A stretch of DNA of 64,000 nucleotides from Rusavskia elegans (taxonomy: Eukaryota > Ascomycota > Lecanoromycetes > Teloschistales > Teloschistaceae): positions 124,001-188,000 of the forward strand of contig SAUG01000087.1 in the NCBI GenBank assembly GCA_011316305.1, read 5' to 3'. Below are positions 2,551-40,835 of the stretch, in pieces; position 1 is the first letter of the stretch; every line of letters begins with the position of its first letter. The notes below the pieces were generated by a model that saw only the letters and a program-made list of their open reading frames with translations, did not search any database and was not told the origin of the DNA. The position numbers were made by a program, and so were the translations under genes.

Positions 2551-5500
2551 ATGGTCGGATGTACTTTCACGGCAGTTGCAACATCATTTGCACTGCTTTC
2601 CGCCCTGAGGCCTGCAGTTTGCTTTGCCGCTGCTGCGCCAGCCGGTCAGCCTGGTGTGGAGAGACCCCGATATTACTTTCCACGGCATGTAAAGCGACAA
2701 GTCTTTACCAACTCATCTACCCCAAACACCCCTGAAGATACAACAACGCCTGATCCAACCACGACGTCAACGACATTGGATGCTCTTCTGAGCAGTCTCT
2801 CGACAGCGGCCGATGACCTGCCCGACGGTGGCAAGGTCATTGAAGTCGTCACCGGAACCCCGGCCACCACACCGTCTCCTACAGCGCCTACTACGACACC
2901 AACACCAACGACATCCAGTAGGCCTACATCGTCAAGACCCACCACAACACCTACGCCAACGTCAACGAACCGGCCCGTAGATACTCCCGAAGAAGCGACG
3001 AGCGATGAGGATGAGTCGTCCAGCAGTCCCACGACGACGCTCACGCCAACTTCAACAAGTCGGCCAGTAGATATTCCTGATGGGACGACAGGCGAGGAGG
3101 ACGGGACGACAAGTAGTCCCACGACGACGCCTACGCCAACGCCAACGTCGAATCGGCCAGTAGATATTCCTGATGAGACGACAGGCGAGGAGGACGGGAC
3201 GACAAGTAGTTCCAGGACGACACCTACAACAATACCAACACCAACGTCAACGAATCGGCCGGTAGATATTCCTGATGAGACGACAGGCGAGGAGGATGAG
3301 ACGATAGGTAGTTCCAGGACGACACCTACAACAACGCCAACGCCAACGTCAACGAATCAGTCGGTAGATGTTCCTGATGAGACGACGAGTGAGGAAGATG
3401 AGACGACAAGTAGTCCCAGGACGACACCTACAACAACGCCAACGCCAACGCCAACGCCATCGAGCCCGCCAGTAGACACTCCTGATGGAAAGTCAAGCGA
3501 GAAGGATGAGACGTCAACCTCTCCTACTACACAAAATGCTCCCACAACCAAATCATCTTCAAGTTCAGAGGACATCCCGCGACAATCGGTTCCCACCACA
3601 ACTTCGCCAAATTCTAGTAATGGCGAAACAACAGCAAAAGCTGCAGCGTCTACCGCTAAGAGAAGTTTCATACCCCTGCCGATAGATGATGCCACTTCGA
3701 CGAGTGCTTCGGTCAGATCTAGCACTACGAGTCCGAAAGAAGGCAACACTCAAACTGCGAACACAGCATCGGCACAAACTTCGAGAGGTGGAAATGTGGG
3801 AATCACATCCAATGTCCCAACGACTAGTCCCGTTTCTTCAGCGGTGGGAGTGATCAGTTCCAGCTTAGAAGTCGAAAGGTCCGGTGCGGTACCGGTCGTA
3901 CCTGTACCCCTCAAGCCAACCTCGACGACTGGCTCGGCAGGGACAACTAGTGTCAGAGACAATGGAGGAGCTGAAGCTACGACTAGCAATCGGTTACCCT
4001 CCTTGCCAAATACGACCGGTGGCTCTGTTTCTGGGTCAAGAGATCAGAATCCGATTAAACCTACAAGCACACAGGATACCAATTCCGGGTCTCAGGCGAA
4101 TGGGTCAGGTTCTTTGACAAGCAATGCCAACGGACAAGGATCCCAGACATCGGTTCCCGGAGGCTCTGGGGTTGGAGGCTCCAACAGTCAAACTAGTCCT
4201 GATACGGGGACTACTCAGCCAAATGCACAGACCTCGCAAACTGACGGGTCAGATTTACTGCTGCCGACGAGTCTACTACCCTCCGGGTCTACCAACACCA
4301 GAGAGTCCGACGAGACAAATCTGCCGCTGCCAACCAGTCTAATACCTTCCGGTCCTACGAATACCAGACTATCTGACGGGACAAACTTGCCGCTGCCAAC
4401 GAGTCTACTACCCTCCGGTTCCACTAATACCAGAGTATCTGACGGGGTAAATCTGCCGCTGCCAACAAGTTTACTGCCTTCTGGTTCTACGGATACTAAA
4501 GAATTCGACGGGATAAACGTGCCGCTGCCAACGAGTCTAATACCTTCCGGTTCTACGAATACCAGAGTATCTGACGGGACAAACTTGCCGCTGCCAACGA
4601 GTCTACTACCTTCCGGTTCTACGAATACCAGAGTATCTGACGGGACAAACTTGCCGCTGTCACCGAGTCTACTACCTTCCGATTCTGCTACTAACAGAGA
4701 ACCTGGCGGGACAAATTTGCCGCTACCAACGAGTCTACTATCCGGTTCTACGAATACCAGAGTATCTGACGGGACAAACTTGCCGCTGCCAACGAGTCTA
4801 CTACCTTCCGATTCTGCTACTAACAGAGAACCTGGCGGGACAAACTTGCCGCTGCCAACGAGTCTACTACCTTCCGATTCTGCTACCAACAGAGAACCTG
4901 ACGAACCGGTCCAGACTACAGCAGGGAACACTGCCGGAGCAGGTAATACGCAGACCTCGAACTCTGGCTTTGCTACCCAGTCTAGCGGTGTTGTACCACC
5001 GGTGATCCCTCTGCCGGTAACGATTTCCAACGACCAGATTACTTTCACCAGCAATGTTCCAGTAAGCAGACTGCCTCAAGGCTCAGGTACAGGAGCACTG
5101 CCGTTAGTCTCATCAGTCCCGGTTACGTTGCCAAACGGCCAGACCACTAACATTGCGGTGTCTGTGCCTACTTCCTTACCAATCGGGGTGTCTCAGGTCT
5201 TACCGACCACACTGCCATCAGGATCTGTACTGGTGACGGTGTCCAACGATGAGACAACTTTCACCAGTGCTGTTCCTGTAGTTGTGCCCACCCCCTTGCC
5301 CTCGGGCGGGACTCAGATTCCGCTGGGAAGCCAGTCAGCTTCTGTCCCGGTTACGATTTCCAACGATCAAACCACCTTTACCACTGAAGTGCCGCTCGTT
5401 ATTCCAACTTCGTCAGCAGTTCTTCCAGGCACTGTTCCGATCTCTATCCCGGTTACTTACTCCAATGACCAGACAACCTTTACCAATGCCGTAGTGGTAA

Positions 5501-7722
5501 CCCCTAGCATTCTTCCCTCCGGAGTTCCAGAGCTATCAACGTCTGTCCCATTGATCATATCCAACGATCAAACGACCCTTTCAACCAATGTGCCTGTTGT
5601 TATTCCGACATCATTGGAGCAGCCGGATACTCAGCCGACTGCCGTACCGGTCACAATTTCCAACGATCAGACAACCTTCACAACCGATGTACCTCTTGTT
5701 GTTCCGGACACTTCGGTAGTACCTCCAGTGCCGCAACAAACAGCGCAAGTGACTATATCGAATGACGAAATGACCCTCACGACTGGTGGTATAATTCTCA
5801 CGAATGCTGGGACCCCTCTTCCAACAGCTACTCCTGACAACCTCTTCTCAACGGCTGTTACTCTGGGCAACGGTCAAGTTGTGACCAGTACAGGATCTGG
5901 TAACATCCCACCAATCATCATACAACCAACCACCAAGGAAGAAAACACACAACCGTTGGTTACTGGCCAAGCATCGATCACAGGTGACACTCCTGAGAAT
6001 CCTCTCACGGGCAGTGGCGGCATCATCGTCGGACCTTCGACAGTGATCACCCCAACAGCTGGAGGATCCGGTACAGCAACCTCAAATAATCTTGGGGCCA
6101 CTTCCCAGACTCTTGATGGTGGTGCCACGCAAACTGCCGGTCTTACTTATACGGGATCCGGGCCAGCAGGGATGAATCCGACCCAAAGTGGTGAGCAATC
6201 AGGCTCGGGTCAAATCATAGGCACCGGACAAATTCAAGCTACTGGTTCAGGGACAGCAGCGGCGAATCCGTCGCAAAGTGGTGAACCATCCGGCTCAGGT
6301 CAAATCATAAGCACCGGACAAATTCAAGCTACTGATTCAGGGACAGTAGCGGCGAATCCGTCGCAAAGTGGTGAACCATCGGGCTCAGGTCAAATCATTG
6401 GCACCGGACAAATTCAAGCTACTGATTCAGGGACAGTAGCGGCGAATCCGTCGCAAAGTGGTGAACCATCGGGCTCAGGTCAAATCATTGGCACCGGACA
6501 GACACAAACCGCAACGGGGGACGCTATAAATACTGGTACAAACCAAGACGTTGCTACGTCTGGAGGTTCGGGTACCTTGGCTGGTGCCACTTTTACAGGG
6601 GATTCAGCCACCAACCCGACTGGACAATCTGCAACGACTGGTAGCAGCGAGCCAACAACAGCTCCGTTGATAGTCCCCCAGTATACCACCACTGGAGGAA
6701 CGTCGTCCGTTACATATGGTGCAACACCAGGAGCGCCTCAGACAATACAGCCAATCGGCACCGACACAAGAACTGCTATCTCAGTCCCAACAAGCCTCGT
6801 TCACGCGCCAACTGGTTCCCAGACGCAAACTTCAGAATTCATTCCAGCCGCTTTGCCTTCATCGGTGCCGCCCCTAATCCAGCCACCAGGCGGTATGCCA
6901 TCACAACCGGCCGACACAACGCGCATCCAAGTTGGCTTTCTGCAAGCACTGAACTACGCGTTTGTGGTCAACAACGAAGTGACACAGGAACAAATTTTCG
7001 ACTTCCTCCCGCCAGGCATAGCCTATGGACTTAACATCCCCGTGGAGAATGTGCTTATGGAGACCCTCAAGGCCGACGCCAGTACAGATCTGCCATACAT
7101 CCGAACTTTGGCGTTGGCTTTCATTCCAAAGGACCAAGTCAACAACCTTTACCTCCATCTCCATACGCCTGCTCACCCAATATATCATAATCCGAATGCA
7201 AGCATAAGTCAGCTGATGAGCTTCATCGATCCATCGGTCGCCATACAAGCAGACAACCCGATGAGCGGATCTTCAGGACCTGGAGGATCCGGTTCTGGCG
7301 CATCCCCCACCCCGACCAATCCGGCACAAGGGGGAGCACCCATTGGCGGCGGTATTGCTAGCGATATGCCTGTGAGGAAGTCGTCTGTAGCAATCGGCGT
7401 TGGGGTTGTTTGTGGAGCAGCTGCCTACGGAGCCGCCATGTTCTTCATCGCACGCAGATACAAGATGCGAAGACAATCCCACATACGGTCGCCGTCTATG
7501 TTCAATTCTCCTGTCTACTCAGGCAGCCACCACGACTTCATGGGAGGAGCCAACGCAGCCCTCATGTCCGGAGCTCGAGGCGACGGTGGTCGAAGTGCGA
7601 CACCACCGATGGACGGATTTGGCTACGGCAGAGATAGCAGAGGCAGTGGCCGAAGCGGATCAACAGGCCGGCAACAGATATCAGCACCGGTCATGGCAGA
7701 AAATTCTCTCGGCTGGAACTGA
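2551..7722 (+). CDS. MSB2: Msb2-type signalling mucin (plasma-membrane osmo/surface sensor)
   Basis: A single exon of 1723 residues starting at the ATG at 2551; an in-frame TTG lies just upstream. Order: signal peptide (about 1-30), a very long Ser/Thr/Pro-rich extracellular region with several tandem-repeat blocks, a conserved Hkr1-Msb2-homology-like region (about 1455-1568, containing QVGFLQALNYAFVV and IDPSVAIQ), one membrane span (about 1611-1637) and a cytoplasmic tail of about 85 residues ending AENSLGWN. I recognise that ending from Msb2 of filamentous fungi. Msb2 is known to act upstream of Cdc42/Ste20 in the filamentation/invasive-growth MAPK pathway and, with Sho1, in osmosensing; in plant pathogens it helps sense surfaces. 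Homology rests on the C-terminal part; the repeat region is not alignable. The extracellular part is expected to be heavily O-glycosylated and shed. Confidence 0.9.
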   Translation: MVGCTFTAVATSFALLSALRPAVCFAAAAPAGQPGVERPRYYFPRHVKRQVFTNSSTPNTPEDTTTPDPTTTSTTLDALLSSLSTAADDLPDGGKVIEVVTGTPATTPSPTAPTTTPTPTTSSRPTSSRPTTTPTPTSTNRPVDTPEEATSDEDESSSSPTTTLTPTSTSRPVDIPDGTTGEEDGTTSSPTTTPTPTPTSNRPVDIPDETTGEEDGTTSSSRTTPTTIPTPTSTNRPVDIPDETTGEEDETIGSSRTTPTTTPTPTSTNQSVDVPDETTSEEDETTSSPRTTPTTTPTPTPTPSSPPVDTPDGKSSEKDETSTSPTTQNAPTTKSSSSSEDIPRQSVPTTTSPNSSNGETTAKAAASTAKRSFIPLPIDDATSTSASVRSSTTSPKEGNTQTANTASAQTSRGGNVGITSNVPTTSPVSSAVGVISSSLEVERSGAVPVVPVPLKPTSTTGSAGTTSVRDNGGAEATTSNRLPSLPNTTGGSVSGSRDQNPIKPTSTQDTNSGSQANGSGSLTSNANGQGSQTSVPGGSGVGGSNSQTSPDTGTTQPNAQTSQTDGSDLLLPTSLLPSGSTNTRESDETNLPLPTSLIPSGPTNTRLSDGTNLPLPTSLLPSGSTNTRVSDGVNLPLPTSLLPSGSTDTKEFDGINVPLPTSLIPSGSTNTRVSDGTNLPLPTSLLPSGSTNTRVSDGTNLPLSPSLLPSDSATNREPGGTNLPLPTSLLSGSTNTRVSDGTNLPLPTSLLPSDSATNREPGGTNLPLPTSLLPSDSATNREPDEPVQTTAGNTAGAGNTQTSNSGFATQSSGVVPPVIPLPVTISNDQITFTSNVPVSRLPQGSGTGALPLVSSVPVTLPNGQTTNIAVSVPTSLPIGVSQVLPTTLPSGSVLVTVSNDETTFTSAVPVVVPTPLPSGGTQIPLGSQSASVPVTISNDQTTFTTEVPLVIPTSSAVLPGTVPISIPVTYSNDQTTFTNAVVVTPSILPSGVPELSTSVPLIISNDQTTLSTNVPVVIPTSLEQPDTQPTAVPVTISNDQTTFTTDVPLVVPDTSVVPPVPQQTAQVTISNDEMTLTTGGIILTNAGTPLPTATPDNLFSTAVTLGNGQVVTSTGSGNIPPIIIQPTTKEENTQPLVTGQASITGDTPENPLTGSGGIIVGPSTVITPTAGGSGTATSNNLGATSQTLDGGATQTAGLTYTGSGPAGMNPTQSGEQSGSGQIIGTGQIQATGSGTAAANPSQSGEPSGSGQIISTGQIQATDSGTVAANPSQSGEPSGSGQIIGTGQIQATDSGTVAANPSQSGEPSGSGQIIGTGQTQTATGDAINTGTNQDVATSGGSGTLAGATFTGDSATNPTGQSATTGSSEPTTAPLIVPQYTTTGGTSSVTYGATPGAPQTIQPIGTDTRTAISVPTSLVHAPTGSQTQTSEFIPAALPSSVPPLIQPPGGMPSQPADTTRIQVGFLQALNYAFVVNNEVTQEQIFDFLPPGIAYGLNIPVENVLMETLKADASTDLPYIRTLALAFIPKDQVNNLYLHLHTPAHPIYHNPNASISQLMSFIDPSVAIQADNPMSGSSGPGGSGSGASPTPTNPAQGGAPIGGGIASDMPVRKSSVAIGVGVVCGAAAYGAAMFFIARRYKMRRQSHIRSPSMFNSPVYSGSHHDFMGGANAALMSGARGDGGRSATPPMDGFGYGRDSRGSGRSGSTGRQQISAPVMAENSLGWN
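2970..3530 (+). repeat. Six degenerate Thr/Pro/acidic repeats inside MSB2
   Basis: About six units of roughly 28-34 codons share an RPVDIPDETT...EED core followed by a TTPTPTST spacer. Units differ in length by small Thr-Pro insertions, consistent with slippage. They form part of the mucin stalk. Confidence 0.85.
4255..4911 (+). repeat. Ten-copy 22-residue (66-bp) tandem repeat inside MSB2
   Basis: Ten consecutive units have the core LPLPTSLLPSGSTNTRVSDG. One unit is a codon shorter (21 residues). Two variant types alternate near the end (STNTRVSDG and SATNREPGG), which suggests unequal exchange within the array. The antisense strand is open across this array only because of the repeat composition. 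Confidence 0.9.
6181..6500 (+). repeat. 90-bp tandem repeat inside MSB2, about 3.5 copies
   Basis: Units begin at 6181, 6271, 6361 and 6451 (the last partial) and encode a Gly/Ser-rich 30-residue motif containing GSGQIIGTGQIQAT. The units at 6271 and 6361 differ at only a few positions and the last one matches over its length, so the array has expanded or been homogenised recently. Confidence 0.9.
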
Positions 7723-12216: not shown

Positions 12217-13239
12217 TCAGGCGAAGAATGGATGACTCTCCAGGAGGGACAGCGTTGTAGTTTTGCTAGTGACATTAGGAAATCGCAAATCCTTATCCGA
12301 AGAATCCTTCTCGAAGTAGGTAATCTGCAGGATGCCAACCTCCTTAGCGAAGCACAGGAGTTCTCGGTAGTGACATCCGATTTGGTCAATGCCATGGCTA
12401 TCATCCGAGATGGTGAATTTCCCCCCCAACCCCAGAAACTCCTGCGGCTGACATCAGCAGCGTTATCTAGCCACGTGTTGGGCAGCATCGACGAACCTTG
12501 CTTATCACCGCGTTGGGATATGGCTCCTTCAGTCCTTTCCTCAACGCTGCCGAGTTGAGCTCGAGGACACCTCCATACTCCCTGATGAAGGTGAGGTTTC
12601 TGCTAATCCTGCGTCGAACACCTTCCATGGATGCAAAGTTGGTATCAGGATCGTCACTCTTCAATCTGATCAAGTCGAAGTGGCCTACGATCGGCGGCCT
12701 CAGTGCCACCAGCATCTCATATTGGAGATCAAAATAGTCCTCGAACAGTTTTTCGTTTGAACCATTGGAGATATGACGCGCCTGGTCAAAGAGAGCGGTA
12801 CTGTAGTCGATGGGGACGCAATGGACATGATGAACGGATCCAATGAACAGCTCGAATGGAAATTCAGAAAGCAAATTCTCTATGAATGCCTTGGATGAGG
12901 GCCGTATCCAATCAACTTCCATGCCTATGAGGATGTTCATGTTTGACAGATAAGCTTGCTGAAGCCTGCGAGCCTCGTCATAGTATCGGCGAAAAGTGTC
13001 CAGGAGTACCTTGTCAGAATAGCCACCTTCGATCTAGTCTAGTTAGTTCAGTTTGAGATAGACGGCTTGTGAGGGATACCCACCTCTTCAGGATAGAGGT
13101 CCTGTTGTTCTCGGGGCATGTGTTCGGTTAGAGCCAGAATATGCATCTTCTTTGTAAGCGCCGCCTTGACAACATCCTCCAGGGTGTCCTTAGCGTGTGC
13201 ACAAAATTGCCCTGAATGACTGTGATGGGAGAAAGGCAT
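12217..13239 (-). CDS. HIS2: Histidinol-phosphatase (PHP family)
   Basis: Three exons (13239-13084, 13033-12497, 12441-12217) with introns of 50 and 55 nt give 305 residues. This enzyme removes phosphate from L-histidinol phosphate, the penultimate part of histidine synthesis, in the cytosol. Metal-binding PHP motifs are visible: HHSHSGQF at the N-terminus, LALTEHMPRE (His40), GMEVDW, GSVHHVHCVPIDYS, GHFDLIR and the C-terminal TISDDSHG. The length is slightly under that of yeast His2. The second donor is GTTCGT, a less common form that recurs in this window. I saw no clear TGACTC-type Gcn4/CpcA site in the proximal upstream DNA. Confidence 0.9.
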
Positions 13240-13698
13240 TCTGAAACTGCCGAATGTTCCAATCTACTTCAGAGTCTGGTACACGTGGTAAGATTCGAAT
13301 GAATGAGAGCATTAGGACTATCAAGATCCAGTCAAAGTCATAGTTCGGGAGCGTGGATTGATGTGGAACCGAATGGTGTTCTTGCCATATGATGTTCAAG
13401 GAGAGAAAAAAAGGTATTTGGAGAGCGAGCAACTTATTGCTGGCGCAGTGAAGAACAGTTGCACGGAAGCCTCGACAGATAGCTCAGCAAGTATGATATA
13501 AAGTAATGATATCATGATTAAAAAATGGAATAGGAAATGAATACGGAAGTGGTGAACCGAGGCGCTAAGCTCTTCTGGGCAGCCGTGCTCGAAGAAGTCA
13601 GAAATGAAAGTTGCGACCACGCGAACACCTTAATATTCGAAGAATAGAGTGCTTATGTTTTCAAAAAGATCTCAGCTGGGCGAAAAAAGAAGTCACAT
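13240..13698. other. HIS2 upstream region
   Basis: Promoter side of HIS2 and downstream flank of the tRNA gene. A run of six A on the plus strand (T6 for the tRNA strand) at 13683-13688 would be the Pol III terminator of the tRNA. Nothing else recognisable. Confidence 0.5.
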
Positions 13699-13836
13699 CG
13701 AGGAACAAGGGACTCGAACCCTCAACCTTGTCTTTGGAGGCACCAAATAGGAGAGACACGCGCTACCCTACAACCGTAATTAGCTTGGACAAGTCAGACA
13801 ACCAGAAAGAGCTCGCCCACATTGCGCCAATTCCCC
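13699..13836 (-). tRNA. tRNA-Arg(CCT) with an anticodon-loop intron and a D-loop insertion
   Basis: Read on the minus strand, the 138-nt gene folds as a canonical tRNA once two segments are removed. The acceptor stem GGGGAAT/GTTCCTC pairs 7 of 7 with two G-U pairs. The D-stem is GCGC/GCGC and the anticodon stem TGTCT/AGACA is perfect. The loop reads CT-CCT-A, then a 13-nt intron at the normal 37/38 site, then A. The T-arm is GAGGG-TTCGAGT-CCCTT and the discriminator is G. The body resembles tRNA-Arg(CCT) of other fungi (TTGGCGYAATGGTARCGCG). The mature length would be 72 nt. A T6 terminator follows 10 nt downstream. The oddity is a 53-nt insertion in the D-loop (13768-13820), listed separately, which also splits the A box. 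It reads AGG codons if functional; a pseudogene cannot be excluded. Confidence 0.8.
13768..13820 (-). other. 53-nt spliceosomal-like insertion in the tRNA D-loop
   Basis: The D-loop should read AAT-GGTA. Here it reads AAT, 53 extra nt, then GGTA. The insertion starts GTGGGC, has GCTAATTA 12-19 nt before its end, and ends TAG. Those are the features of the short GT...AG introns in neighbouring protein genes: HIS2 uses a GTGGGT donor, and CTAAT-type branch sites are common here. Exact removal restores A14, A15, G18, G19 and A21. The border is ambiguous by one G. Confidence 0.75.
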
Positions 13837-14394
13837 CGCGATGATTTTGGAACATTTCCTTATTCCTCTATATAATTTACGTGGTTCATCTGAGAAGTGG
13901 CTCTGTCATATCTGGAAATGGTTCCCCGGGTTTCAAATCCCACTTTTTCGAGCACTTAAGCCGGTAGTTGGAGACCCTGCAGGATCCAACAAGTGAAGAT
14001 GATTGGACGATATGCTTGCTTGGCTCTTGATTGACGGTTTTGCTGTATGGTTGGGTTGCACTTGTGCGCGCGTGTGTGTATTGAACTATAGGTGACACGA
14101 TTGGAACAATTCAAGGCCTTGATAGAAGATTGTTGTGATAAAATCTGTAGAAAAGGGCAAGGGACTGTCACTTAGTCGGTCCCGTTCTTGTCCCCCAGAA
14201 ATACGTTATATGTGTGGAAGTAACTTTCGAGCAGCTGGAACTCGACTACGGGATGTGCCAATGACGATCAATGTTTGTTTGAGAGAATCGCCTGTTCTTA
14301 TGGGCACTCGGTCCAAGTTAATGCTGAGTCATGCGAGAAGCCGGTCGTTGCAGTCATTGCAGGATCCCTTCCATTGCTAGATGGCAAAGTGTAT
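13837..14394. other. tRNA upstream flank and 3' flank of the ACP synthase gene
   Basis: No protein frame with conserved motifs and no further RNA gene seen. A short GTGCGCGCGTGTGTGTATTG alternating purine-pyrimidine tract lies near 14063-14082 on the plus strand. Confidence 0.5.
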
Positions 14395-39575: not shown

Positions 39576-40835
39576 ATGGCTTCGACAAAATCTAGGAATT
39601 ATGATCTGATTCTACTGGGTGCTACGGGATATACTGGCAAACTATGCGCTGAGTACATTACTACCAGTCTACCCACAGATCTCAAATGGGCAGTGTCCGG
39701 TCGTTCTCATGAAAGGCTGTCCGCGATTGTGGAAGAATTGGAGTCCTTCAATGCCGAACGAGTGCAGCCAAATATCGAGGTGGCCACCTTGTCGCTGGAT
39801 GATTTAAGATCCCTAGCCAAAAAAACACGCATCATTTTGAATACTGTGGGTCCATATCATAAGTATAGCGGCCCTGTTGTCCAAGCATGTTCCGAGACTG
39901 GTACTCACTATCTGGATGTTACTGGAGAAACGCCTTGGGTATATGAGATGATACACAAACATCATGATACCGCAAAAGCAAGTGGTGCAATCATCATCCC
40001 AGAGATTGGCCTTGAATCTACCCCTTCCGATCTTCTTGCATGGACTTTGGCCACTTTGATTCGGGAAGACCTTTCCCTGGCCACCAAACAAATCGTAGCC
40101 TCTGTTCACAAGATGGATTCCCAGCTATCTGGTGGCTCACTCGCTACTATCACTGGTATATTGCAACACTACACCTTGGCTGATTTCAGAAAGTCCTCTG
40201 CTCCCTGGGCGCTGTCCCCCGTCCCTGGGCCTAAATCGTCAAAGACGGTGCCACTCGCAACGAGGCTGCTGGGTGTCCGAAGGACACAACATCTCGGGAT
40301 TCTCACTACGTCTATTACAGCGGGGCCTAACGTTGCCATTGTCCAACGTTCATGGGGTCTGCTGGGTGGCCCGAGGTCATATGGCCCCAATTTCCAGTAC
40401 CATGAGTATATGCGGGTCAAGAATTCACTGGCGGGTTTCATTATCCACGCTGCGTTGTGCCTAGGCGGTCTGGCCATAATCATACCTCCGGTAAGATGGT
40501 TGATCCAATGGGCTGCCCATAACTATTATGCACCGGGCCAGGGCGCTTCTAAAGACGCCACTGCAAAGGATGCATTCGAGCTCCGAGCTGTCGCTGAAGC
40601 CGACCAAGATGTGCCAAAACCACGAATGGCAATGGCCAAATTCCGGTACGACGGCGGTATTTACTATATGACCGGGATTTTCTTAGCTGAGGCGGCCATG
40701 GTACTGTTGACGAACGACGACCTGACTACCAGGCTAGGCGGTGGGCTCTTGACGCCTGCAATGTTAGGGCAGCCCTTTATTGACCGTCTAAGAAACGCAG
40801 GCGTGACCTTGGAAAGCAGAATTATGCCTGAATGA
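39576..40835 (+). CDS. Saccharopine-dehydrogenase-like oxidoreductase (SCCPDH / trans-acting enoyl reductase family)
   Basis: One exon, 419 residues from the ATG at 39576; the frame continues 9 codons upstream only to a GTG. An N-terminal Rossmann fold is clear: YDLILLGATGYTGKLCAEYI at about 8-27 binds NAD(P), followed by NTVGPYHKYSGPVVQAC, YLDVTGETPW and IIPEIGLESTPSDLL. A hydrophobic segment LAGFIIHAALCLGGLAIIIP near 288-307 could anchor it to a membrane or lipid droplet, as in SCCPDH. It ends GQPFIDRLRNAGV. The reaction is unknown; the fungal members are not the lysine-pathway saccharopine dehydrogenase, and a role in lipid metabolism is an inference. Confidence 0.9.
   Translation: MASTKSRNYDLILLGATGYTGKLCAEYITTSLPTDLKWAVSGRSHERLSAIVEELESFNAERVQPNIEVATLSLDDLRSLAKKTRIILNTVGPYHKYSGPVVQACSETGTHYLDVTGETPWVYEMIHKHHDTAKASGAIIIPEIGLESTPSDLLAWTLATLIREDLSLATKQIVASVHKMDSQLSGGSLATITGILQHYTLADFRKSSAPWALSPVPGPKSSKTVPLATRLLGVRRTQHLGILTTSITAGPNVAIVQRSWGLLGGPRSYGPNFQYHEYMRVKNSLAGFIIHAALCLGGLAIIIPPVRWLIQWAAHNYYAPGQGASKDATAKDAFELRAVAEADQDVPKPRMAMAKFRYDGGIYYMTGIFLAEAAMVLLTNDDLTTRLGGGLLTPAMLGQPFIDRLRNAGVTLESRIMPE

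What the first reader, a model, noticed from the sequence alone, without database searches (positions are those of the whole stretch)
13699..13836. tRNA-Arg(CCT) gene whose D-loop is split by a 53-nt spliceosomal-like intron
Seen: every tRNA element is present and paired only if a 53-nt segment is removed from the D-loop as well as the ordinary 13-nt intron at 37/38. The D-loop segment starts GTGGGC, carries GCTAATTA and ends TAG, matching neighbouring mRNA introns; its removal restores the invariant A14, G18G19 and A21. Known: eukaryotic nuclear tRNA introns sit at 37/38 and are cut by the tRNA endonuclease, and Pol III needs an intact A box, which this insertion interrupts. Inference: either a nuclear tRNA that depends on the spliceosome (and possibly on Pol II or an altered Pol III promoter), or a recently disabled gene. 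tRNA-Arg(CCT) is often single-copy in fungi, which would make the first option striking.
Basis: partly seen in the sequence, partly recalled or inferred. Interest (0 to 1): 0.88.

Follow-up and report, generated by a model that had tools for sequence, protein, structure and literature searches.

The report
Nuclear tRNA genes with mRNA-type introns
In a lichen-forming fungus, the tRNA-Arg(CCT) gene and three other nuclear tRNA genes each carry a short insert that looks like the introns of messenger RNAs, at places where the normal tRNA-splicing enzyme is not expected to cut, which would make these tRNAs depend on the spliceosome.

Summary
Confirmed and extended. On the minus strand at 13699-13836 lies a tRNA-Arg(CCT) gene. 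Removing 53 nt from the D-loop (13768-13820: GT...GCTAAT...AG) and a 13-nt 37/38 intron leaves a 72-nt cloverleaf with 21 of 21 stem pairs. Its D arm is identical to that of the genome's own tRNA-Arg(TCT). A covariance model built without it scores it 57.5 bits. Whole-genome patterns find no other tRNA-Arg(CCT), within their limits.

New: it is not alone. In 210 kb read from this Teloschistaceae genome, three more tRNA genes become intact when a 48-55 nt GT-AG segment is removed: Gly(CCC) and Gly(GCC), in the T stem at 52/53, and Pro(AGG), in the D arm at 13/14. All four inserts have GCTAAY 14-17 nt from the 3' end, as mRNA introns do. None forms a bulge-helix-bulge. With a branch site required, control removals give no further case. 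Stems keep 82 of 84 pairs.

Best reading: Pol III pre-tRNAs spliced by the spliceosome. No RNA was examined. Ten searches of the held library listed no precedent in nuclear tRNA genes.

The parts
13699..13836 (-). tRNA-Arg(CCT) gene, 138 bp, with two introns
   Evidence: cloverleaf 21/21 pairs after both removals; model R1 57.5 bits over exactly these coordinates
13821..13836 (-). 5' exon (positions 1-16: acceptor 5' strand, D stem 5' strand, A14 A15 T16)
13768..13820 (-). 53-nt mRNA-type intron in the D loop between T16 and G18, GTGGGC...TAG
   Evidence: GT-AG ends; removal restores a D arm identical to tRNA-Arg(TCT); signal score reached by 1.05% of 1,425 GT-AG segments of 48, 53 or 55 nt
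13779..13784 (-). putative branch site GCTAAT, starting 17 nt from the intron's 3' end (branch A at about 13780)
   Evidence: of the 13 mRNA introns used for comparison 12 have a CTRAY hexamer starting 14-24 nt from the end
13748..13767 (-). middle exon GGTAGCGCGTGTCTCTCCTA: G18 G19, D stem 3' strand, anticodon stem 5' strand, C32 T33 C34 C35 T36 A37 (anticodon at 13749-13751)
13735..13747 (-). ordinary 13-nt tRNA intron at 37/38 (TTTGGTGCCTCCA), expected substrate of tRNA endonuclease
   Evidence: 11 of the 18 class I tRNAs parsed from this genome have 5-20 nt introns at the same place
13699..13734 (-). 3' exon: A38, anticodon stem 3' strand, variable loop, T arm, acceptor 3' strand, discriminator G
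13817..13829 (-). A box TGGCGCAATGTGG, kept in the unspliced gene because the intron begins GTGG
13710..13720 (-). B box GGTTCGAGTCC
13869..13874 (.). TATATA, 38 to 33 nt upstream of the tRNA 5' end
   Evidence: of 30 other tRNA loci, 5 have as best match a full TATAWA between -41 and -25 (L005, L015, L016, L028, L029); so such a box is found in this position but is not general
13683..13688 (-). run of six T starting 11 nt after the tRNA 3' end, Pol III terminator
13034..13083 (-). mRNA intron of the neighbouring PHP-domain (histidinol-phosphatase-like) gene: GTGGGT...ACTAAC...TAG, 50 nt, same kind of signals
   Evidence: (PHP match at residues 5-179 of the predicted protein spans the junction at residue 52)

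Best explanation
It is a working nuclear tRNA-Arg(CCT) gene whose D loop holds an extra 53-nt spliceosomal (mRNA-type, U2) intron besides the usual 37/38 intron. Shown from sequence: the anatomy; the GT, GCTAAT and AG signals; the Pol III signals (upstream TATA, A box kept by the intron's first bases, B box, T6); the absence of decay; and three sister cases in the same genome, Gly(CCC), Gly(GCC) and Pro(AGG). Inferred: Pol III transcribes the 138-nt gene. The spliceosome removes the D-loop intron through a lariat at about 13780, joining AAT to GGTA. The tRNA can then fold and be trimmed, and tRNA endonuclease and ligase remove the 13-nt intron. Inferred origin: insertion of spliceosomal introns into non-coding RNA genes (for instance by reverse splicing), as lichen fungi are known to have in rDNA and fission yeast in U6. 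Such introns would persist most easily where an intron end rebuilds a Pol III box: the A box in Arg, and the B box in both Gly genes, where the terminal AG supplies G52.
For: Cloverleaf after removal, 21/21 pairs. D arm identical to Arg(TCT). Model R1, which does not contain this gene, 57.5 bits. No other Arg(CCT) found: DNA search with the spliced gene (close copies only), CTCCTAN{15,45}GGTTCRANTCC 1 hit, {46,76} 0 hits. Three more genes: L080 Gly(CCC), 55 nt; L040 (also in L032) Gly(GCC), 48 nt; L006:1020-1162 Pro(AGG), 53 nt. In 210,076 bases, 2,994 GT-AG segments with a branch site were removed one by one; the 5 places scoring 109 or more are these 4 genes (Gly GCC is held twice) and the next best is 100.5. 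Seven other dinucleotide pairs, branch site also required, reached 109 only by imprecise removals at three of the same genes, Arg, Gly(CCC) and Pro. Insert lengths 48-55 nt against 47-70 nt for 13 mRNA introns, GCTAAY starting 14-17 nt from the end in all four; signal scores reached by 0.2% (three inserts) and 1.05% (Arg) of 1,425 GT-AG segments. No bulge-helix-bulge in any of the four. TATA and T-run. Codons served are ordinary: AGG 10.5, GGG 13.2, GGC 24.8, CCT 15.9 per thousand in 27 predicted genes. Precedents: spliceosomal introns in lichen rDNA are removed from rRNA (PMC8527467, passages); U6, a Pol III transcript, has an mRNA-type intron in fission yeast (PMC10484740, passages).
Against: No RNA data: neither transcription nor splicing was observed. 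The Arg intron has the weakest signals of the four (score 8.43, below all 13 mRNA introns; GTGGGC with G at +4 and C at +6). The 13 comparison introns were hand-picked from a gene finder that favours such motifs; 12 of 13 junctions lie inside a Pfam match. ARAGORN does not fix insert borders: imprecise removals score as high for Arg (112.0) and Pro (110.1). In the earlier version without a required branch site, one probably false GT-AG hit (L097, 110.4) and one control hit (L130, 111.2) outscored Pro. R1 gives Pro 26.7 bits, no more than a tRNA-derived repeat (up to 28.2). Pro(AGG) loses its A box and has two non-pairs. The minimum-energy fold of spliced Gly(CCC) is not the cloverleaf, and Gly(GCC) was folded only with its 37/38 intron left in, again not a cloverleaf. 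Copy numbers of the Gly and Pro genes are not known. Yeast survives without tRNA-Arg(CCU) (recalled), so loss of this gene might be tolerated. DNA of related species could not be compared.
Confidence: 0.86

Rival explanations
1. A recently disabled gene: a stray insertion broke the D loop, the tRNA is lost, and AGG is read by tRNA-Arg(TCT).
For: Standard tRNA finders do not see the gene. Arg(CCT) is dispensable in yeast (recalled). The insert's splice signals are weak.
Against: 21/21 stem pairs, invariant residues, TATA, B box and T6 are all kept. The insert has GT, branch and AG in the right spacing, and three other tRNA genes carry the same kind of insert with stronger signals; both Gly genes have 21/21 pairs.
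Confidence: 0.07
2. An ectopic tRNA intron cut by tRNA endonuclease, as in Cyanidioschyzon merolae or nucleomorphs, with GT-AG ends by chance.
For: Ectopic D-loop and T-loop tRNA introns exist in a red alga and ectopic ones in nucleomorphs, and many nucleomorph ones form no defined BHB motif (PMC3978253, passages), so lack of the motif alone does not exclude this. This fungus has 37/38 introns in 11 of 18 parsed tRNAs.
Against: None of the four inserts forms a bulge-helix-bulge at its ends: the best central helix has 3 of 4 pairs, and 76-92% of shuffled introns do as well or better. GT, AG and GCTAAY at -14 to -17 in all four, with lengths of mRNA introns, is not expected of endonuclease introns.
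Confidence: 0.05
3. A chance resemblance or assembly artefact.
For: ARAGORN reads the same coordinates as a different tRNA, Ala(TGC), if a long intron is allowed at 37/38, and on its own does not fix the exact insert borders. The genome holds tRNA-derived repeats and tRNA-like shells.
Against: Model R1 gives E 7e-14 with exact ends. The spliced D arm is identical to a sister tRNA. With a branch site required, control removals give no comparable tRNA elsewhere in 210 kb. There are four cases.
Confidence: 0.02

Closest known systems
Ectopic spliceosomal introns in the nuclear rDNA of lichen fungi (Bhattacharya et al. 2000, cited in PMC8527467, passages seen)
   Same: mRNA-type introns placed inside a non-coding RNA gene of lichen-forming ascomycetes; the text says they need spliceosomes and that the mycobiont removes all introns from rRNA.
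   Different: Those lie in Pol I rRNA genes; these lie in Pol III tRNA genes. I could not find the rDNA in this assembly, so the two were not compared here.
mRNA-type intron of the U6 snRNA gene in Schizosaccharomyces pombe (PMC10484740, passages seen)
   Same: A Pol III transcript with an mRNA-type intron that is spliced out; thought to come from reverse splicing.
   Different: U6 is part of the spliceosome, which suggests how its intron got there; tRNAs are not. The single U6 hit in this genome is 103 bases long over all 105 model positions, so has no intron.
Ectopic tRNA introns of Cyanidioschyzon merolae and the Guillardia theta nucleomorph (PMC3978253, passages seen)
   Same: Nuclear or nucleomorph tRNA genes interrupted at places other than 37/38 (in C. 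merolae the D loop and T loop among them).
   Different: Those of C. merolae are tied to BHB motifs and tRNA endonuclease (many nucleomorph ones lack a defined BHB). These have no BHB and carry GT, GCTAAY and AG.
Canonical eukaryotic 37/38 tRNA introns
   Same: The same gene carries one of 13 nt.
   Different: The D-loop insert is elsewhere, longer, and has mRNA-type signals.

Membership tests
U2-type spliceosomal intron | GT at the 5' end and AG at the 3' end | tested here: met
   13768-13820 and the three sister inserts
U2-type spliceosomal intron | 5' splice site, branch site and length like this organism's mRNA introns | tested here: met
   lengths 48-55 against 47-70; GCTAAY at -14 to -17; scores 12.7, 10.8 and 10.3 against 10.5-13.9. 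Arg scores 8.4, below all 13, so it meets this only weakly
U2-type spliceosomal intron | Removal by the spliceosome through a lariat | not testable with these tools
   needs RNA
Functional cytoplasmic tRNA gene | Cloverleaf with conserved residues once introns are out | tested here: met
Functional cytoplasmic tRNA gene | Pol III signals: TATA, A box, B box, T-run | tested here: met
   for the window gene. Of the sister genes Pro(AGG) lacks the A box and Gly(CCC) shows no TATAWW within 60 nt upstream
Functional cytoplasmic tRNA gene | Expression and aminoacylation | not testable with these tools
   needs RNA or a complementation test
Eukaryotic 37/38 tRNA intron (tRNA endonuclease) | Position between residues 37 and 38 | tested here: not met
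   the 53-nt insert lies in the D loop; the separate 13-nt intron does meet it
BHB tRNA intron (archaea, C. merolae) | Bulge-helix-bulge at both junctions | tested here: not met
   central helix 3 of 4 pairs at best; 82% of shuffled introns do as well or better for Arg
Introner element | Many near-identical copies in the genome | tested here: not met
   a DNA search with the 157-nt locus finds no second place; the four inserts share no long match (best local scores 5-7)
Ectopic spliceosomal intron of lichen rDNA | Lies in rDNA | tested here: not met
   lies in a tRNA gene; works like one, but is not a member

The most novel reading that the evidence does not exclude
In this lichen lineage spliceosomal introns have invaded nuclear tRNA genes as a class. 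Several tRNAs that serve ordinary codons, including the only tRNA-Arg(CCT) found, exist only if a Pol III transcript passes through the spliceosome and then through tRNA endonuclease. Translation capacity is thereby tied to splicing, which could act as a brake under desiccation, as has been proposed for lichen rDNA introns. Introns survive mainly where their ends rebuild an A or B box.
Probability: 0.4. Interest if true: 0.95.

Novelty: new variant of a known kind. Interest (0 to 1): 0.9.

Why it matters
tRNA splicing is described as independent of the spliceosome and guided by structure rather than GT-AG signals (review PMC13149111, passages). Nuclear tRNA genes that need both machines would break that rule. 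They would show that Pol III pre-tRNAs can enter the spliceosome before the D or T arm can fold, and they would explain why standard finders miss or misread some tRNA genes of such genomes: Arg(CCT) escapes both ARAGORN and Rfam here, while Rfam does see Gly(CCC) in a small search. They also offer a natural test of how introns enter non-coding RNA genes, and of whether lichen fungi limit translation through slow splicing.

Tried and rejected
Pattern GCGCAATNNNGTAGCGC was mis-specified (two bases too long) and says nothing. Pattern TCCTAN{15,45}GTTCRANYC is close to chance (169 against 152 reversed) and only 100 of 169 places were listed; one hit that looked like a tRNA, C14:18608, is Arg(ACG) and another, C23:127031, is Tyr. 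The first gene finders were too strict or over-trained; the version was used. The ARAGORN deletion scan does not fix insert borders. Folding the unspliced RNA shows no unusual stability (z 0.47). GGTTCGASTCC has 50 hits against 60 reversed; all 50 were read, 44 fetched and 6 already held. GGTTCGAWTCC (362 hits against 17 reversed) is swamped by a tRNA-derived repeat; 100 places were listed and 97 of those were read: 11 GGTTCGATTCC (9 fetched, 2 already held as L019 and L030) and 86 of 89 GGTTCGAATCC (6, 80); 262 places were never listed. R1 run on the fetched loci and on the window with the first 32 loci gave as further D-loop case only Pro(AGG). rDNA was not found, so rDNA introns were not compared. 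Two alignments (A1, A3) were not used for models; A1 was misaligned in the T stem. In one search I set the variable loop of Pro(AGG) one base too short, so its printed acceptor and T pairs are wrong; read by hand with a 5-nt loop it has 19 of 21 pairs (misses A6-C67 and U13-U22). Of the pairs counted as 82 of 84, 63 are and 19 from that hand reading. In one search, L031 and L037 were dropped because they repeat the window locus; L032 and L040 overlap and were both kept, so Gly(GCC) appears twice. One search was a submission in the wrong format.

Full report
What was checked. The window is bases 124001-188000 of contig C207 of a 44.16-Mb assembly in 217 contigs. A conserved protein (39576-40832) is 96% identical to one of a Rusavskia elegans MAG, a species of Teloschistaceae. 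The named proteins among the next best hits (72% identity or more) come from genera such as Calogaya, Polycauliona, Flavoplaca, Xanthocarpia, Gallowayella and Teloschistes, which I recall as the same family. The genome is therefore from a lichen-forming ascomycete close to Rusavskia or Xanthoria.

The gene. On the minus strand, 13699-13836 reads GGGGAAT TG GCGC AAT [53 nt] GGTA GCGC G TGTCT CTCCTA [13 nt] A AGACA AGGTT GAGGG TTCGAGT CCCTT GTTCCTC G. Without the two bracketed segments it folds as a perfect cloverleaf with 21 of 21 pairs, 3 of them G-U. With only the D-loop segment removed the acceptor, D and T arms still form. The D arm is letter for letter that of the genome's tRNA-Arg(TCT), so the insert is bounded to within one base; of the two equivalent choices one gives GT-AG. 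Model R1, built from nine other tRNAs of this genome with 53 neutral positions in the D loop, scores the gene at 57.5 bits, E 7e-14, with exact ends. Rfam's tRNA model reaches only 14.3 bits, and ARAGORN misreads it.

Copy number. A DNA search with the spliced tRNA finds only this locus (it shows close copies only). CTCCTAN{15,45}GGTTCRANTCC has exactly one match in the genome, this gene (reversed control 0), and N{46,76} has none. A copy with a 37/38 intron longer than about 60 nt, a different loop or B box, or one missing from the assembly would escape. The 157-nt locus has no second match, so the insert is not a recent repeat or introner.

Transcription signals. TATATA stands 38 nt upstream and TTTTTT starts 11 nt downstream. 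Of 30 other tRNA loci 5 have as best match a full TATAWA between -41 and -25, so the box is found here but not general. In the DNA it is not: TGGCGCAAT followed by the intron's GTGG still fits the box. The B box is intact.

Is it the only one? All 50 places of the B box GGTTCGASTCC and 97 of the 100 listed places of GGTTCGAWTCC (362 in all) were read, together with the 3-kb surroundings of 30 tRNA hits. Rfam showed a tRNA in L080 with an insert in the T arm. The gene is tRNA-Gly(CCC), and the insert is GTATGT...GCGCTAACGTGTCCAG, 55 nt, between 52 and 53. A systematic test followed: in 210,076 bases (176 sequences), each of 2,994 GT...AG segments of 44-75 nt with a CTRAY near the end was removed and ARAGORN run. 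Five places scored 109 or more and were absent or weaker before removal: Gly(CCC) in L080 (117.5), Gly(GCC) in L040 and again in the overlapping L032 (115.3), Arg(CCT) in the window (112.0), Pro(AGG) in L006 (110.1). The next best was 100.5. With seven other dinucleotide pairs, branch site also required, the only hits at 109 or more were imprecise removals at three of these genes (Arg three times, Gly(CCC) once, Pro once); for Arg and Pro they score as high as the GT-AG removal, because ARAGORN does not fix borders in the D loop. There the borders rest on the restored D arm.

The earlier version is less clean. Anchored on B boxes and without a required branch site, GT-AG removal gave four loci at 112 or more (three genes, Gly(GCC) twice), all with a branch site, while six control pairs gave 112 or more only by imprecise removal at L080 and never with a branch site. 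Below 112, however, a probably false GT-AG hit (L097, 110.4), a control hit (L130, 111.2) and another (L041, 109.6) lie around the score of Pro (110.1). Pro therefore rests on its sequence more than on its score.

The other three. Gly(GCC) (L040:151 onwards) has a 48-nt insert GTAAGC...GCTAACTCCATTAAG at the same 52/53 position, plus a 13-nt 37/38 intron. Pro(AGG) (L006:1020-1162, plus strand) has a 53-nt insert GTACGT...GCTAATCGTCCCACAG between 13 and 14, plus an 18-nt 37/38 intron; spliced, it reads TGGTCTAGTGGTATGATTCTCGCTTAGGG, the familiar proline tRNA D and anticodon arm (recalled). R1 matches it over its full length at 26.7 bits, but a dispersed tRNA-derived repeat of about 115 nt reaches 28.2; in the alignments shown the Pro insert fills the neutral D-loop positions, which the repeat copies shown do not, except one (L154, 20.9 bits). 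Pairs: Gly(CCC) 21/21 and Gly(GCC) 21/21; Pro 19/21 read by hand, because I set its variable loop one base short. The minimum-energy fold of spliced Gly(CCC) is not the cloverleaf; Gly(GCC) was folded only with its 37/38 intron left in. In both Gly genes the intron's final G restores the B box GGTTCGAGTCC. In Pro the A box is lost.

Are the inserts like mRNA introns? From the gene predictions I took 13 introns of the window by hand; for 12 of 13 the junction lies inside a Pfam match (PHP, M28 twice, RPB9, kinase, FKBP twice, MTP18 once of two, LTA4H C-terminal, PIG-N three times). They are 47-70 nt long, have G at +5 in 13 of 13, and a CTRAY hexamer starting 14-24 nt from the end in 12 of 13. 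The tRNA inserts are 48-55 nt, with GCTAAY at -14 to -17. A small weight matrix gives the mRNA introns 10.5-13.9 and the tRNA inserts 12.7 (Gly CCC), 10.8 (Pro), 10.3 (Gly GCC) and 8.4 (Arg). Of 1,425 GT-AG segments of 48, 53 or 55 nt in the window, 0.2% reach each of the first three scores and 1.05% the last. The Arg insert is thus the weakest case by signals. Two of the 13 mRNA introns start GTGGGT, one of them in the PHP gene beside the tRNA and one after an exon ending AAT, the tRNA's exon end. The matrix rests on few introns found with a motif-aware finder, so these numbers are guides.

Against the tRNA-endonuclease reading, none of the four junction pairs forms a bulge-helix-bulge; 76-92% of shuffled introns do as well or better. 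Since many nucleomorph tRNA introns also lack the motif, the positive mRNA-type signals weigh more than its absence.

Need. AGG, GGG, GGC and CCT are ordinary codons here (10.5, 13.2, 24.8 and 15.9 per thousand in 27 predicted genes).

What is known. Lichen fungi carry ectopic spliceosomal introns in rDNA that are removed from rRNA (PMC8527467, passages). S. [quoted passage not shown] Ectopic tRNA introns are known from C. merolae and nucleomorphs (PMC3978253, passages). [quoted passage not shown] The Cladonia grayi genome paper, in the passages seen, mentions rDNA introns and no tRNA introns (PMC6652019). Ten searches of the held open-access library listed no paper whose title or opening abstract reports spliceosomal introns in nuclear tRNA genes. 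Five of those lists were cut short (15 of 19, 10 of 12, 15 of 23, 12 of 14 and 20 of 126 papers shown), most subscription papers are not held, and no listed paper was read beyond the passages named.

Conclusion. What is missing is RNA. The step from signals to splicing is inference, strengthened by four tRNAs with intact or nearly intact stems that would otherwise all be dead in the same improbable way.

Noticed in passing
L041:118-282, L054, L069, L130:127-282 (G000 C14, C65, C148, C35): tRNA-like shells (GCCCAGGTGG...GGTTCGANTCC...GTCTGGG) whose anticodon region holds roughly 90-130 nt, forming a long hairpin in L041 and L054, with no sensible anticodon next to the stem; inserts not GT-AG; L069 fits only in part. 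Function unclear.
   Followed up: partly
L046, L050, L052, L063, L076: Five copies of a Pol III-like element with conserved ends (TCTGGGTGAGTGGTCTGGCAGC...GTCAATTTGTCCGGGGTTCGAGTCCTCGACCAGA, with variants) and an unrelated interior; no Rfam match at E 0.01.
   Followed up: partly
whole genome G000; examples L132:169-282, L151, L108, L111: B box GGTTCGAWTCC occurs 362 times against 17 for the reversed pattern. Many of the fetched copies belong to one dispersed tRNA-derived repeat of about 115 nt (GGCCTGGTGGCGCAG...GGTTCGAATCCCTCGAAGGC), SINE-like.
   Followed up: partly
L030:1501-1632, L090, L091: tRNA-like repeat GGCGCTATAGTATAGTAGTAGTA... with mutated stems and a long anticodon-loop insert; may be a C-to-T mutated (RIP-like) repeat.
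   Followed up: no
L007:1501-1571 and L022:1501-1571: Two intronless tRNAs, 67 of 71 bases identical, read by ARAGORN as Ile(GAT), an unusual anticodon for a nuclear eukaryotic tRNA-Ile (recalled).
   Followed up: no
G000:C21:362656-362758: The only U6 snRNA hit of the genome is 103 bases over all 105 model positions: no intron.
   Followed up: yes
window 2551-7722 (+): A 1,723-residue open reading frame, Ser/Thr/Pro-rich with repeats, probably a secreted or cell-wall protein.
   Followed up: no
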